Positions 4,536-17,128 of a stretch of 24,188 nucleotides of DNA are shown here, piece after piece (position 1 is the stretch's first letter; each line of letters opens with the position of its first letter). The DNA comes from an uncultured Chitinophagaceae bacterium (GTDB taxonomy: Bacteria > Bacteroidota > Bacteroidia > Chitinophagales > Chitinophagaceae). The DNA lies in contig CAKSVK010000036.1 of assembly GCA_934502905.1 (NCBI GenBank), positions 1 to 24,188 on the forward strand, read 5' to 3'. The translations under genes and the position numbers were made by a program. The notes under the pieces are model-generated. The model saw only the letters and a list, made by a program, of their open reading frames with translations, had not been told where the DNA came from and did no database searches.

Positions 4536-4913
4536 ATGAAACGAAATATCCTTTTAGTTCTATGTACGCTGCTGGGTTTAATGATGATCAACTCCGGGTT
4601 AAACAAGTTTTTTAATTATATGCCTGTTTCCGCACCCACTGAAGAACAAATGAAGATCTTCGGGGCCATGATGACGCTGAAATGGCTGATACCATTAGTA
4701 GCTATTGTTGAAATTGCCGGGGGCATCTTAATGATCATTCCTAAAACCAGGGCTTTGGCAGCTCTTGTACTGTTACCTGTTTTGACGGGCATCGTTGCAC
4801 ATCATTTAGCGTTGGATGTTGCAGGTATCGGAATAGGATTACTATTATTTGCCATTAATGTTTGGGTGATCATCGAAAACAGGGAAAAGTATTTACCGAT
4901 TGTAAGCAGGTAA
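4536..4913 (+). CDS. DoxX-like small membrane protein
   Basis: 125 residues with four hydrophobic segments (about 4-24, 48-66, 70-88 and 93-113), which is the four-helix layout of DoxX-like proteins. Shared features are the early M-x-N-S-G-L-N-K-F segment after helix 1 and the A-x-V-E-I-A-G-G-I-L-M-I stretch in helix 2. DoxX relatives are inner-membrane proteins linked in several bacteria to thiol or oxidative-stress functions, but their biochemistry is mostly unsettled. The gene is divergent from an HxlR regulator carrying an N-terminal cysteine, a common pairing that suggests induction by redox-active or electrophilic compounds (inference). It converges on the lipid-enzyme operon with only 21 bases between. 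Confidence 0.8.
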   Translation: MKRNILLVLCTLLGLMMINSGLNKFFNYMPVSAPTEEQMKIFGAMMTLKWLIPLVAIVEIAGGILMIIPKTRALAALVLLPVLTGIVAHHLALDVAGIGIGLLLFAINVWVIIENREKYLPIVSR

Positions 4914-4934: not shown

Positions 4935-5816
4935 TTATGCCACTGCTTTTTTCTTATTTTCTACCAGTAAGGCATGCAATACCTCGGTGGATAACCCGTG
5001 CAGGGTCAGCCGGAATGCAGCCCCCAGCGTGGGTAACGGTATCATGGGGTGTTTGTTGTTAAGCGCTACCAGCTTCTCAGGGCAATTCATGATCGTTGCT
5101 GCATAAATGCCGATCACTTCATCCAGCTGCAGCGAATTGGATGCCCGCCAGAAATCATGGTCTGTCAGGAAAAGCTGGTACACCGGTGTAAATATTTCTA
5201 TGGCGCTCGACAGGTCCAGGAAATTGGTCCATTTGTCCCTGAACTCCTCGAACGGAATGGGACCTGTGGAAATAGCGCTGAAATCCGGGTGGAGTACATG
5301 CTCAATTTTCAGTTGCTTTTCTCTAATGGCATTATTAAGATTGATAATAAAATTATATAGGTTTAGATCGTGCTCCAGGAACAGGTTGTTTTTCACATCG
5401 TTTACGGATAACGGCTTTAGCGGGTTCATCGGGATGTCTTCTGCGCCTTTCACGTTGTCCTTTATAAAACGAAGCACTTCTGATCCGAGGTAGAAATGCC
5501 GGAGGATCAGAAAATTGGCTTCAGGTGTAATGAAATACTTCATACCTACATACAGGCAACGGTGCAGGGTTTTCGGCATATTGATCAGGTTGGGAAATAT
5601 TGCTTTTATGATCTGTATCAGTATAATGAATATCCTGGCGATTACGCGGACAAAAGGCAGGAAAAACTGCCTGGTCTTTTTGCTGGAATCATACAGGAAT
5701 GCGGCCTTGGCATCCGGGCTGAACGGAATGCTTTTGTCCAGGTAGAGGGCATGCCAATGGCTCGGATCACGGGGATCATTTTTCAGGTTCTCAAAGTATT
5801 CACTGGTATGAAGCAT
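4935..5816 (-). CDS. Unrecognised protein, last gene of the ketosynthase operon
   Basis: 293 residues; family not recognised. One strongly hydrophobic segment at ~51-75 suggests a membrane anchor or membrane-dipping helix. The rest appears mainly helical with scattered acidic/His pairs (H107...E113 in ILRHFYLGSEVLRF, E148-H149 in FLEHDLNLY, D219-H220-D221 in FLTDHDFW) that could belong to a metal site; this is speculative. Hydrophobic positions near the C-terminus (TLGAAFRLTLHGLSTEVL) complete the protein. It starts 9 bases after the ketosynthase-oxidase stop and so is almost surely co-transcribed. A role in the same lipid pathway (acyl transfer, scaffold or further oxidation) is inferred from position only. 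Confidence 0.75.
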   Translation of the reverse strand: MLHTSEYFENLKNDPRDPSHWHALYLDKSIPFSPDAKAAFLYDSSKKTRQFFLPFVRVIARIFIILIQIIKAIFPNLINMPKTLHRCLYVGMKYFITPEANFLILRHFYLGSEVLRFIKDNVKGAEDIPMNPLKPLSVNDVKNNLFLEHDLNLYNFIINLNNAIREKQLKIEHVLHPDFSAISTGPIPFEEFRDKWTNFLDLSSAIEIFTPVYQLFLTDHDFWRASNSLQLDEVIGIYAATIMNCPEKLVALNNKHPMIPLPTLGAAFRLTLHGLSTEVLHALLVENKKKAVA

Positions 5817-5825
5817 ACATAGCGT

Positions 5826-7700
5826 TTAATAGTTACCAATTTCTGCCAGTTGCATCTGGTATAGTTTAGCTACAACTTTGGCTGTTTTCAGCACTCTTTT
5901 AGCAATATCTTCTGTAAGTAACTCAGAATTGAGTGCATTTTCAAATCTTTCAAAATGATTTTCGTTGCTGTCGCTGGTTTCGTGATACGTGAAAAACGAG
6001 ACCTGGTCATCTTTCAGGTCCAGCAGGTGTTGAATAGCGCGTCCCCAGTTGCCGGCGATCCTGTTGCCCAGCCCTTCAATGATAAACATACCACCGAGCA
6101 GATCGAACGGGTTGGGCTGGCTGGCCCGTTGGAACATGAAAGCGCTTAACGCTTCACTACCGATATTTTTCTCACCGTTATAAAGATCTTCCTTCGTGCC
6201 TCCGCAGTTAATGTAATTCTTCTCCAGTATCTGGTAGTCCCGGTGCTCGTCTCTTGAATGGCTGATGAAGGAAGAACGCACATCAAAGTATTCCATCGTT
6301 ACATTGGATGCCGCCCGGGCTATCCATTGCGATCCGTCGATTACCTGTTGCCGTAAGTTCAGCAGCAGCAATTTATAGTCTTCCAGGGTGATCGTCCCAT
6401 CGTATATCTTTTGGATGACCGGTGTGTTCCTGAGCCGTGTTTCAAAATCCACCCACACAGATGCTAATCCTCTCACCAGCCATTCCTGGACGGGTTTACC
6501 TTCCGTGGTGATCTGTGGCGGCAGTATGTCATCTTCTCGGCTGATCAACGGTGTTTTTGCCGGTGCTGTATTGTCCACTACGGTAAGTTGCATGTACGTG
6601 GTGATGAACCGCCCGCTTTCGGGAACCATGCATAGTATTTTTTGCCCGTTTTTCAGTTGGTGGTTATACAGCAGCTCTTCCAGCATGATAAAAATAGAGG
6701 CAGCGCCCGTATTACCCTTGGAATGCAAATTGGTAAACCATTTTTCTTCCGGTATTTCCAGCCCTCCTTTTTCCAGCAGGTCTACGATCGGTTGCTTGAA
6801 ATATTCTGAGGAATAGTGACACACCAGCCAATCCATTCCTTTCGGATCTATTTTGTTTTCATCTACCAGGTTGAAGAAATGCTGTACCCCCAGGCTCACA
6901 ATATTGTTGACGATACGGAGATCTTGCTTCAGGTTGATAGCGCCAGCCGCATCCGCATCGGAAAAGCTGTTGTAATCCATCCAGCTCTTTCCCGCGGTAC
7001 CATTCCCGGTTTTATTGATGCCGGCATACATGCAGGGTTCAAACAGGTGGGCGTAGGAGCGGATGTCTATCCATTCGATCCTGAAGCTTATGCCGCTGCC
7101 GGGTTTATCCTGCATTAAAAATGCGCCGGCACCATCCGATAACATCCAGCGCAGAAAATCTGTTTCCAGCGGTAAACCACCATGCATAACAGCATCCTGG
7201 TGCGTGAACCGTTTTGCCTTGAACATCCGGCTGGGAAGCTCGCCGGCACAGGCAACAGCATGGGATACTTCCCCGCTTTGGATATGCAGGAAGGCATTTT
7301 TAACCGCCATGATCCCGGATGCGCAAACACTTTGGTGGCTGGAAACAGCGCAAACAGGCAACGCAGCTTCTGCCTGTACCATGCTGGCAAAGCCAGGCAC
7401 CGGCAGGTCGCTTTGGGTAGTGGCTGCGGATAGCAGCTCTATATTTTCTTTATGAAGTTTTGCTTTCTGCAGGCAGTCTGCTATGGCTTTGGCCGTCATG
7501 CTGCTGACGGATTCTGTCGTATTCTGCTGTTTGTCCAGCGCATAGTAACGGGTATGGATACCGTTTTGTTTCAGCATCCTGCTTTTGCTGCGCGATGGCT
7601 GATTATTTATGTAGCCGAGATAATCCTCTATTTCCTCGTTGGAGACAGGGTTACCGGGCAGGTATTTTCCGATGGCATTGATATAAACAGGTGATCTCAT
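5826..7700 (-). CDS. Fusion: beta-ketoacyl synthase III + heme-oxygenase-like di-iron oxidase
   Basis: 624 residues with two enzyme domains. Residues ~1-375 are a thiolase-fold KAS III (FabH-like) domain with the full triad: Cys126 (S-V-C-A-S-G), His295 (V-C-H-Y-S-S) and Asn330 (K-G-N-T-G-A-A-S). It should join an acyl thioester to another acyl or malonyl unit. A Pro-rich linker (~376-400) leads to residues ~405-624, an all-helical heme-oxygenase-like/iron-containing redox domain. Candidate iron ligands are His481, Glu485, His486, Glu542 (F-I-I-E-G-L-G-N-R), His573, Asp577 and Glu580 or His582 (F-F-T-Y-H-E-T-S-D). Relatives with this fold include UndA (fatty acid to terminal alkene), SznF and CADD. 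The gene sits 7 bases after a membrane hydroxylase gene and 9 before an unknown gene. The fusion suggests that a newly condensed acyl chain is handed directly to an oxidative step (inference). It is too divergent to be the housekeeping FabH. Confidence 0.85.
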   Translation of the reverse strand: MRSPVYINAIGKYLPGNPVSNEEIEDYLGYINNQPSRSKSRMLKQNGIHTRYYALDKQQNTTESVSSMTAKAIADCLQKAKLHKENIELLSAATTQSDLPVPGFASMVQAEAALPVCAVSSHQSVCASGIMAVKNAFLHIQSGEVSHAVACAGELPSRMFKAKRFTHQDAVMHGGLPLETDFLRWMLSDGAGAFLMQDKPGSGISFRIEWIDIRSYAHLFEPCMYAGINKTGNGTAGKSWMDYNSFSDADAAGAINLKQDLRIVNNIVSLGVQHFFNLVDENKIDPKGMDWLVCHYSSEYFKQPIVDLLEKGGLEIPEEKWFTNLHSKGNTGAASIFIMLEELLYNHQLKNGQKILCMVPESGRFITTYMQLTVVDNTAPAKTPLISREDDILPPQITTEGKPVQEWLVRGLASVWVDFETRLRNTPVIQKIYDGTITLEDYKLLLLNLRQQVIDGSQWIARAASNVTMEYFDVRSSFISHSRDEHRDYQILEKNYINCGGTKEDLYNGEKNIGSEALSAFMFQRASQPNPFDLLGGMFIIEGLGNRIAGNWGRAIQHLLDLKDDQVSFFTYHETSDSNENHFERFENALNSELLTEDIAKRVLKTAKVVAKLYQMQLAEIGNY

Positions 7701-7707
7701 AATTATG

Positions 7708-8442
7708 CTATTGCTTGTTTTTGGGTAAAGAAGTTTTAAACAGTTGATCCAGGTAGGGCAACATAAAACCGAAGTTGCCCTGGCTCCATTTGTGGTGCAT
7801 CGTATGGCGGAAAGTAAGCCGGCTTACATCTTCTATGTCCGCGGTTGTTTCTTTCTCATGGTTACAATGACCGATAAGGTTAAGTATGATGCTCATAACG
7901 GGCAAGCTGAGAACGGAAAAAATGTGAAAATCGTGCACTGCCAGCGGGAAGAACACCACTGTGCCCAGCAGGAATGCTTCTACCCAGTGGAAGCTGAAGA
8001 CCGAATAGACCGTAGGCTCCTTTGACTGGTGATGCACATAATGCACATGTTTCATAAGCCATTTTCGATGCAGCAGCCAGTGGACCGCATAGAAATGGAT
8101 TTCATTCCAGAGGAACATTACAGGTATTTCCCAGAGACAGCTCCAGGCATGGTGGAACCTGATATGGAAATAACCGTTGTGGATAAGCCAGGGCAGGGGG
8201 ATGGCCTGTATGCTGAATATCAGGATGGAAACCATGGAACGGCTGATCTCATGACTAACCTGTCCCTTGTGCAAATTTTGGTATATCGCGTGCACTTTCC
8301 CTTTCGATCTCAGGCTGCGCAATATTACAGAAGCAATAAAAGTACCGCCGAAATACAGGGTGGAGAAAAACAGGAAAAAGAACAAAAATGACCAATACCA
8401 TTCAGAAAATATAAAATGGTATATGTTTTCGAGTCTTTCCAT
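7708..8442 (-). CDS. Sterol desaturase/fatty acid hydroxylase family membrane di-iron enzyme
   Basis: 244 residues, a compact member of the FA_hydroxylase superfamily (PF04116). Hydrophobic stretches at ~16-42, 70-88, 100-120, 155-170 and 175-192 embed it in the inner membrane. The three His clusters are intact: H121-x3-H125-R, H134-x2-H137-H138 and H213-x2-H216-H217, with H192/H195 in G-H-C-N-H as an extra pair. The family uses a non-heme di-iron centre and O2 to hydroxylate or desaturate lipids. First gene of the operon: the ketosynthase-oxidase fusion follows after 7 bases. No TAnnTTTG box was found in the 120 bases upstream and there is no Shine-Dalgarno sequence. The exact lipid is unknown; a hydroxylase acting on a long acyl chain is the best guess. 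Confidence 0.88.
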   Translation of the reverse strand: MERLENIYHFIFSEWYWSFLFFFLFFSTLYFGGTFIASVILRSLRSKGKVHAIYQNLHKGQVSHEISRSMVSILIFSIQAIPLPWLIHNGYFHIRFHHAWSCLWEIPVMFLWNEIHFYAVHWLLHRKWLMKHVHYVHHQSKEPTVYSVFSFHWVEAFLLGTVVFFPLAVHDFHIFSVLSLPVMSIILNLIGHCNHEKETTADIEDVSRLTFRHTMHHKWSQGNFGFMLPYLDQLFKTSLPKNKQ

Positions 8443-8500: not shown

Positions 8501-8536
8501 ATAAATAAATATACCTGTCAATTTGCTGACAGGTAT
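8501..8536 (-). terminator. Intrinsic terminator of the tail-specific protease gene
   Basis: A perfect 10-bp inverted repeat, ATACCTGTCA (8511-8520) with TGACAGGTAT (8527-8536), has a 6-base loop. Read on the minus strand it lies 27 bases past the protease stop and is followed by ATTTATTTAT. It separates the protease gene from the downstream lipid-enzyme operon. Confidence 0.7.
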
Positions 8537-8563
8537 ACTGAAAAAACATTATTTTCTCTCCGG

Positions 8564-16003: not shown

Positions 16004-17128
16004 ATGCTACAAAGGGCTTTATACAACAATATCCTGGCAAATACAGGTAAGCAAAAAGTAAGCATTTTGCTGGGGGCGAGACGGGTAGGTAAAACGCATT
16101 TATTGCAGCAAATCAAAAACGACACACCGAAAAGTTGTCTTTGGTTGAATGGCGAAGATGAAATCGTAGCTACTGTTCTCGAAGAAAGAAGTATTGCTAA
16201 CTACAAAACCCTTTTGCAAGGCTATGAACTGCTGATAATAGATGAAGCGCAATATATAAATGATATAAGCAGAAAAGTAAAGCTCATGATCGATGAGATA
16301 AGCCCCCTGCATATTATCATTACAGGCTCAAGTGCTTTTGACATGCAGCAGACCGGTGAGCCGCTGACAGGTCGTAGCATTACCTATACCATGTTCCCGG
16401 TGGCACAAATGGAGCTGGTAAAACAGGAAAATCTTATTCAAACAAAAGAACTTTTGAGTGAACGGCTGGTATTTGGCAGCTACCCCGAAGTAATTACATT
16501 ACCTACGCTTGCTGAAAAGCAGGAATATCTTTTTGAATTGATCAATACTTACCTTTTAAAAGATATATTGGCATTTGAAAATATAAGAAACCCGCAAAAG
16601 CTGAAGGATTTGCTGGTATTGCTGGCTTACCAGATTGGCGGCGAAGTCTCCTTTGACGAATTGGGCAGGCAATTGGGGCTTAGCAAGAATACAGTTGAGC
16701 GGTACTTAGACCTGCTTAGCAAAGTGTTTGTAATATATAATCGAAGGGGATACAGCAGAAATTTAAGGAAAGAAGTAACGAAAAGCAGCCGATGGTATTT
16801 TTATGATAATGGTATACGCAATGCACTTATCAGCAACTTTAATTTGCCTGCATTGCGACAGGACATGGGCATGTTGTGGGAAAATTATATTGCAACCGAA
16901 CGGTTGAAGTATAATACATACAACCATCTTTTTGTGAACAGTTATTTCTGGCGTACATACGACCAACAGGAAATAGACCTGGTAGAAGAGCAAAATACAG
17001 CACTCAATGCTTATGAGTTTAAGTGGAAACAGGATAAAGCAAAAATTCCGGTTGCATTTGCAAAAGCATATCCGGGCGTTTCGTTTTCGGTAATACATTC
17101 GAACAACTATCTCCATTTTATTACCTGA
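16004..17128 (+). CDS. AAA ATPase with DUF4143 (AAA_14 family)
   Basis: 374 residues. The ATPase domain (~1-150) has Walker A G-A-R-R-V-G-K-T (24-31), Walker B L-L-I-I-D-E-A-Q with Asp80-Glu81, and a sensor segment I-I-I-T-G-S-S (~104-110). A winged helix follows at ~213-240 (SFDELGRQLGLSKNTVERYL). The C-terminal DUF4143 part contains E323-I-D325 and Y-E338-F-K340, which resemble a PD-(D/E)xK nuclease motif. These proteins are common, patchily distributed and often next to direct repeats; their function is poorly known, and defence or mobile roles have been suggested. The flanking features here, 32-bp repeats upstream and a repeat region downstream, support an accessory gene. Autoregulation through the repeats via the winged helix is inference. 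Confidence 0.88.
   Translation: MLQRALYNNILANTGKQKVSILLGARRVGKTHLLQQIKNDTPKSCLWLNGEDEIVATVLEERSIANYKTLLQGYELLIIDEAQYINDISRKVKLMIDEISPLHIIITGSSAFDMQQTGEPLTGRSITYTMFPVAQMELVKQENLIQTKELLSERLVFGSYPEVITLPTLAEKQEYLFELINTYLLKDILAFENIRNPQKLKDLLVLLAYQIGGEVSFDELGRQLGLSKNTVERYLDLLSKVFVIYNRRGYSRNLRKEVTKSSRWYFYDNGIRNALISNFNLPALRQDMGMLWENYIATERLKYNTYNHLFVNSYFWRTYDQQEIDLVEEQNTALNAYEFKWKQDKAKIPVAFAKAYPGVSFSVIHSNNYLHFIT

What the first reader, a model, noticed from the sequence alone, without database searches (positions are those of the whole stretch)
4935..8442. Three-gene operon pairing a ketosynthase III/di-iron oxidase fusion with a membrane di-iron hydroxylase
Seen: gaps of 7 and 9 bases link an FA_hydroxylase-superfamily protein with all three His boxes, a KAS III with an intact Cys126/His295/Asn330 triad fused to a heme-oxygenase-like oxidase domain, and an unknown protein. 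Known: KAS III enzymes build acyl chains; heme-oxygenase-like di-iron oxidases such as UndA and SznF do unusual oxidations; the hydroxylase family oxidises membrane lipids. Inference: the operon makes an oxidised acyl product (an alkene, hydroxy-lipid or specialised membrane lipid) not assigned to any pathway I know. No acyl carrier protein or polyketide genes are adjacent, so substrates probably come from primary fatty acid synthesis.
Basis: partly seen in the sequence, partly recalled or inferred. Interest (0 to 1): 0.85.

Follow-up and report, generated by a model that had tools for sequence, protein, structure and literature searches.

The report
Ring-forming ketosynthase fused to oxidase
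A small, conserved gene set in scattered bacteria joins an enzyme that probably stitches two fatty chains into a ring with oxygen-using enzymes and a protein family of unknown function, pointing to a ring-shaped lipid-like product that may not have been described yet.

The parts
7708..8442 (-). Membrane fatty-acid-hydroxylase superfamily protein (PF04116), 244 aa, first gene of the unit
   Evidence: PF04116 76.9 bits; in 299 genomes matches at E 1e-20 or better only in 7, all fusion-bearing
6573..7700 (-). StlD/DarB-like ketosynthase domain (residues 1-376) with Cys126, Glu154, Arg184, Cys223, His295, Asn330
5829..6518 (-). Haem-oxygenase-like oxidase domain (about residues 395-624); candidate metal ligands Glu420, His481/Glu485/His486, Glu542, His573, Asp577, His582
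   Evidence: PF14518 28.9 bits at cut-off 28.9; 3dde E 4.1e-7 with profile A3; residues invariant
5826..7700 (-). Whole fusion gene, 624 aa
   Evidence: model m5344fa5a56a2 pLDDT 88.5
4935..5816 (-). DUF6999 (PF22523) protein, 293 aa; invariant His107, His149-Asp150, Asp201, Asp232, near-invariant His273 and Glu278
   Evidence: 404.2 bits; conservation over 237 rows; model ma2e8fbdeb9e1 pLDDT 89.2
8508..8539 (-). 14-pair stem followed by a T-rich stretch, after the S41 protease stop and before the unit: possible boundary
   Evidence: the number of terminator-like sites in the region equals the shuffled mean (5 against 5.0), so only a hint

Best explanation
A dedicated, patchily distributed biosynthetic unit. 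The StlD/DarB-like ketosynthase condenses two acyl thioesters from fatty acid metabolism and closes a 2,5-dialkyl-cyclohexane-1,3-dione ring (family chemistry plus active-site match, not shown here). The fused haem-oxygenase-like domain receives it directly and oxidises it with O2, either aromatising it to a resorcinol, as DarA is reported to do in flexirubin makers, or adding oxygen to the ring (inferred). DUF6999, the constant partner, carries seven strictly kept His/Asp/Glu residues and probably catalyses a further metal- or acid-base-dependent step on the same ring (inferred). Where present, the dedicated membrane hydroxylase oxidises an alkyl side chain (inferred). Shown: gene order, co-occurrence, domain identities, kept active-site residues, separate-gene version in Pseudoalteromonas.
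Against: The ketosynthase scores under both curated cut-offs (411.9 against 450; 374.3 against 550), so substrate and product may differ from DarB. Glu154, kept in all 21 fusions of the tree, is Asp in at least three of the 44 rows (P0036, P0043, P0048). The tree branch between fusion and DarB-like rows has 60/100 support. The PF14518 hit is only at its cut-off, and the Pseudoalteromonas protein has no PF14518 hit at E 0.1. DUF6999 has no fold match, so its role is a guess. In 10 of 21 fusion genomes a DarA match is present and could act on the product. G773 has DUF6999 without the oxidase domain, and a distant locus (L093) has a ketosynthase and a DUF6999-like gene without it.
Confidence: 0.5

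Rival explanations
1. The ketosynthase makes a different head-to-head product (beta-keto acid, pyrone or linear ketone) and the oxidase cleaves or decarboxylates it, UndA-like, to an alkene or ketone; DUF6999 assists.
For: The score is below the curated DarB and StlD/DarB cut-offs and Glu154 is Asp in some fusions; oxidases of this fold do C-C cleavage (UndA, passages of PMC13108848).
Against: The other residues tested are kept and the closest structure is StlD; no sequence relation to UndA was detected, the only solved match of the oxidase profile being 3dde.
Confidence: 0.2
2. The unit makes or remodels a membrane lipid: the ketosynthase supplies an unusual acyl chain and the membrane hydroxylase (plus, in Fluviicola, a desaturase) oxidises lipid tails.
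For: Dedicated membrane hydroxylase in 16 of 23 loci; second hydroxylase in Sinomicrobium L010/L011; desaturase between the genes in L014.
Against: Seven of 23 loci, including three Chitinophaga, lack the hydroxylase next door, and G710 has no match at E 1e-20 anywhere in its genome; the distribution (8 of 299) is too patchy for a core membrane lipid.
Confidence: 0.17
3. The unit is a paralogue that merely contributes to flexirubin or ordinary dialkylresorcinol production.
For: Eight of 15 fusion genomes carry a DarB over the cut-off and the same eight match the presumed DarA.
Against: Seven of those 15 have neither; fusion and DarB-like ketosynthases separate in the tree; none of the seven ketosynthase-only loci has DUF6999.
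Confidence: 0.06
4. The oxidase domain has lost catalysis and serves as a scaffold or sensor.
For: Weak Pfam score and a two-residue insertion between Asp577 and His582 against the Pseudoalteromonas form.
Against: All eight candidate ligand residues are invariant in 44 fusions.
Confidence: 0.05

Closest known systems
DarB/DarA dialkylresorcinol (flexirubin) pathway
   Same: Ketosynthase nearest to the same subfamily; same tested active-site residues in the tree rows; fatty-acid-derived substrates expected; same phylum
   Different: No presumed DarA at the 16 fusion loci; fused haem-oxygenase-like domain; DUF6999 partner; own group in the ketosynthase tree
StlD, ketosynthase of bacterial stilbene formation (PDB 5gk0-5gk2; pathway recalled)
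   Same: 39% identity over 369 residues, rmsd 1.7; the position changed in the H302A mutant aligns with His295
   Different: The solved StlD is a single-domain ketosynthase of about 380 residues; no fused oxidase
Haem-oxygenase-like di-metal oxidases (UndA, CADD, SznF; 3dde)
   Same: Helical domain with Glu...His...Glu...His-x3-Asp-x(2-4)-His residues like the 3H/3C set described in PMC13108848 (passages)
   Different: No sequence match to a characterised member in the solved structures; fused to a ketosynthase; the review's main text has no occurrence of 'ketosynthase', 'fused' or 'fusion'
OlsE-type ornithine lipid hydroxylases (NF052566)
   Same: Weak profile similarity, FA_hydroxylase superfamily
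   Different: 17.5 bits against a cut-off of 475: not an OlsE

Membership tests
StlD/DarB-type ketosynthase | Score over NCBI's curated cut-off (NF005293, 450 bits) | tested here: not met
   411.9 bits for the window protein; 14 unbroken fusions in 15 genomes 409.8-438.9 bits, the fifteenth (G012) in two pieces
StlD/DarB-type ketosynthase | Catalytic Cys-His-Asn plus Arg184 and Cys223 shared with StlD | tested here: met
   21 of 21 fusions, 15 of 15 DarB-like rows and StlD; also invariant in 44 rows. That these residues mark the chemistry is inference
StlD/DarB-type ketosynthase | Glu at position 154 | tested here: inconclusive
   Glu in 21 of 21 tree rows but Asp in at least three of 44 rows; its role is recalled
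StlD/DarB-type ketosynthase | Forms a 1,3-cyclohexanedione | not testable with these tools
   needs an enzyme assay
Dialkylresorcinol (dar) pathway | DarA aromatase with DarB | tested here: not met
   No member of the presumed DarA group F7 at the 16 fusion loci or in the window; no match in 11 of 21 fusion genomes. The query is called DarA because it sits beside a DarB-like gene; no family model names it
Haem-oxygenase-like di-metal oxidase | Family profile match | tested here: met
   PF14518 28.9 bits at cut-off 28.9; 3dde E 4.1e-7
Haem-oxygenase-like di-metal oxidase | 3 His / 3 carboxylate ligand set | tested here: met
   Glu420, His481 or His486, Glu542, His573, Asp577, His582 invariant; ligand roles by analogy only
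Haem-oxygenase-like di-metal oxidase | Fold match of the domain to solved members | tested here: inconclusive
   Ketosynthase matches filled the lists shown; the domain was not folded alone
FA_hydroxylase superfamily | PF04116 profile and His boxes | tested here: met
   76.9 bits, cut-off 31; His positions
DUF6999 | PF22523 profile | tested here: met
   404.2 bits, cut-off 27
DUF6999 as a member of a known fold | Significant structural match | tested here: inconclusive

The most novel reading that the evidence does not exclude
DUF6999 is a new enzyme family (possibly metal-dependent: three His and four Asp/Glu kept from Bacteroidota to Gammaproteobacteria and in a distant relative) that, with the haem-oxygenase-like oxidase, converts StlD/DarB-made dialkyl cyclohexanediones into a new class of oxygenated ring lipids, for instance hydroxyquinone-like redox or signalling compounds, built directly from primary fatty-acid thioesters and produced by scattered members of Bacteroidota, Gammaproteobacteria and perhaps Paenibacillus.
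Probability: 0.3. Interest if true: 0.8.

Novelty: new variant of a known kind. Interest (0 to 1): 0.64.

Why it matters
If right, a 3-gene, about 3.5-kb unit is enough to turn two ordinary fatty-acid intermediates into an oxidised ring, a compact route to dialkyl ring lipids. It would give a function to DUF6999 (1563 proteins at E 1e-3 or better among 2383 candidates with the window protein), add a ketosynthase-oxidase fusion to the haem-oxygenase-like oxidases, and offer an O2-dependent alternative to the DarA aromatase. The unit is small enough to express and test directly.

Tried and rejected
Literature: no paper held the word DUF6999, at least three of 'ketosynthase / heme oxygenase-like / fatty acid hydroxylase / Bacteroidetes', or both 'beta-ketoacyl-ACP synthase III' and 'iron-containing redox enzyme'. 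Of the wider searches I saw listings only: 30 of 60 papers, 25 of 64, 18 of 18, 20 of 208, 11 of 11, 12 of 47; no title or abstract start there told of such a fusion. Passages were seen of four papers: PMC13108848, PMC4578411 (no occurrence of DarB or StlD), PMC3949708, PMC3992019. The library is open-access PMC; Fuchs et al. 2013 (Angew. Chem.) on the widely occurring ketosynthase is known here only as a citation and might mention fused forms.

DUF6999 as a cousin of the oxidase domain: hhalign probability 0.3%, rejected. DUF6999 as an HD-domain oxygenase: the His...HisAsp...Asp pattern suggested it (recalled), but no such structure stood out in the lists. No solved relative of the hydroxylase by sequence at E 1. 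PHROGs gave nothing for the three proteins.

Hydroxylase in Chitinophaga: all 15 fusion genomes have FA_hydroxylase genes, but among the loci fetched none from Chitinophaga was closer than 29% to the window protein; not all places were fetched. Promoter and terminator scans are at chance level.

Plasmids gave only the one Pseudoalteromonas locus. The genome of L002 was not among the handles given.

Mended on checking: 'DarA' is a presumed label; the unbiased linkage count is 16 of 16 (not 17); Glu154 varies to Asp in some fusions.

Full report
What is there. Three genes on the minus strand, 8442 down to 4935, separated by 7 and 9 bases: a 244-aa FA_hydroxylase protein, a 624-aa fusion and a 293-aa DUF6999 protein. 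Upstream lies an S41 protease whose stop is followed by a 14-pair stem (8508-8539); downstream a convergent DoxX-like gene ends at 4913. No ACP or polyketide gene was found among 19 window ORFs scanned against Pfam, and no window gene joined the presumed DarA group F7.

The oxidase domain. PF14518 scores just at its cut-off (28.9); a profile of nine such domains finds one solved structure, 3dde, at 4.1e-7. Glu420, His481, Glu485, His486, Glu542, His573, Asp577 and His582 are invariant in 44 fusions and in nine rows that include the free-standing Pseudoalteromonas protein. This fits the three-His, three-carboxylate set described in PMC13108848 (passages); which residue binds which metal is inference. 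The fold lists did not test this domain, because ketosynthase matches filled them.

Conservation., a search with the fusion, gave 23 loci: 16 with the fusion (L001-L016) and 7 with a ketosynthase only (L017-L023). In six of those seven a gene of group F7, here presumed to be DarA, lies upstream on the same strand, next to the ketosynthase in five; the seventh (L022) has none of that group; none of the seven has DUF6999. No family model names F7; it is called DarA because it sits beside DarB-like genes, as darA and darB do in C. pinensis. With six further loci (L086-L091) and the window there are 23 fusion loci. DUF6999 follows on the same strand in 23 of 23, within 35 bases in 21; the exceptions are L010 (287 bases) and L014 (771, with a fatty acid desaturase between). 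The hydroxylase precedes in 16 of 23, in seven of them overlapping by exactly 4 bases; it is missing next door in L007, L008, L012, L016, L086, L090 and L091. Selection: the 16 came from a search with the fusion alone (16 of 16 with DUF6999); the six others were reached by DUF6999 and, independently, by the oxidase domain; the window was given.

Co-occurrence. In 299 genomes (family of G001, a Maribacter), DUF6999 is in 9 and the oxidase domain in 8; both in 8. The ninth, G773, has a lone 229-aa DUF6999. Fisher p 6e-15, or 2e-8 after removing the four seed genomes; relatedness of genomes is not corrected for. The window-type hydroxylase (E 1e-20 or better) is in 7 of the 299, all among the 8; the one without is G710. 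In 296 genomes (phylum of G006, a Chitinophaga) strong matches of both fall in the same 4 genomes, G006 being the seed; one weak DUF6999 (G234) and one weak oxidase match (G158) do not overlap. In 195 genomes (family of G006) only G006 itself has DUF6999. The unit is rare and patchy. The two larger samples share at least G197.

Split version. On a Pseudoalteromonas sp. THAF3 plasmid the ketosynthase, an 'iron-containing redox enzyme family' protein and DUF6999 are consecutive separate genes (ketosynthase plus oxidase 47% identical to the fusion). Fusion in one phylum and adjacency in another argue that the domains work in one pathway; this is one locus. Upstream there sits a 185-aa protein, hydrophobic and with four His kept in five aligned relatives; in the four other contexts looked at it has no ketosynthase beside it, so a role as hydroxylase substitute is only a suggestion.

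Not simply the flexirubin pathway. Eight of 15 fusion genomes also carry a DarB over the cut-off, the same eight that match the presumed DarA; overall a DarA match is in 10 and not found in 11 of 21 fusion genomes, nor in G773 (22 genomes). The fusion unit therefore occurs without the dar genes in about half of the genomes.

Judgement. Gene linkage and domain identities are solid; the ring product rests on family chemistry; the roles of the oxidase, DUF6999 and hydroxylase are inference. 'No described pathway' rests in an open-access library only, most of them seen as partial listings.

Noticed in passing
L093:1404-5132 (genome G234): An StlD/DarB-like ketosynthase overlaps by 8 bases a DUF6999-like ORF that keeps all seven conserved His/Asp/Glu residues; a flavin monooxygenase is downstream and no oxidase domain was matched. 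Ketosynthase and DUF6999 may be the older pair.
   Followed up: partly
L065:9660-10217: 185-aa hydrophobic, His-rich protein without a Pfam or NCBIfam match sits directly upstream of the split ketosynthase in Pseudoalteromonas; relatives occur on Pantoea, Erwinia, Bradyrhizobium and other plasmids, some annotated 'diguanylate cyclase'.
   Followed up: partly
L014:11845-12630: Fluviicola has a fatty acid desaturase inserted between the fusion and DUF6999.
   Followed up: no
L010:13054-13767 and L011:12774-13502: Sinomicrobium carries a second, distant FA_hydroxylase after DUF6999.
   Followed up: no
L013:10001-11877: The fusion gene of a Taibaiella MAG is in two frames (real break or assembly error not decided).
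   Followed up: no
L092:7477-8166 (genome G773): A lone DUF6999 gene lacking its N-terminal part (profile 63-275), with no oxidase-domain match in the genome: perhaps a remnant.
   Followed up: partly
L101, L102: Phocaeicola and Prevotella plasmids carry a TetR regulator next to a DarB-like ketosynthase without an annotated DarA beside it.
   Followed up: no
L100:4709-11116: A Streptomyces plasmid has ACP, a StlD/DarB-like ketosynthase (42% to the window), an unknown 321-aa protein, FAD monooxygenase, SCP2, FabF and P450 in a row.
   Followed up: no
window 16004-17128: AAA_14/DUF4143 ATPase in the same window.
   Followed up: no
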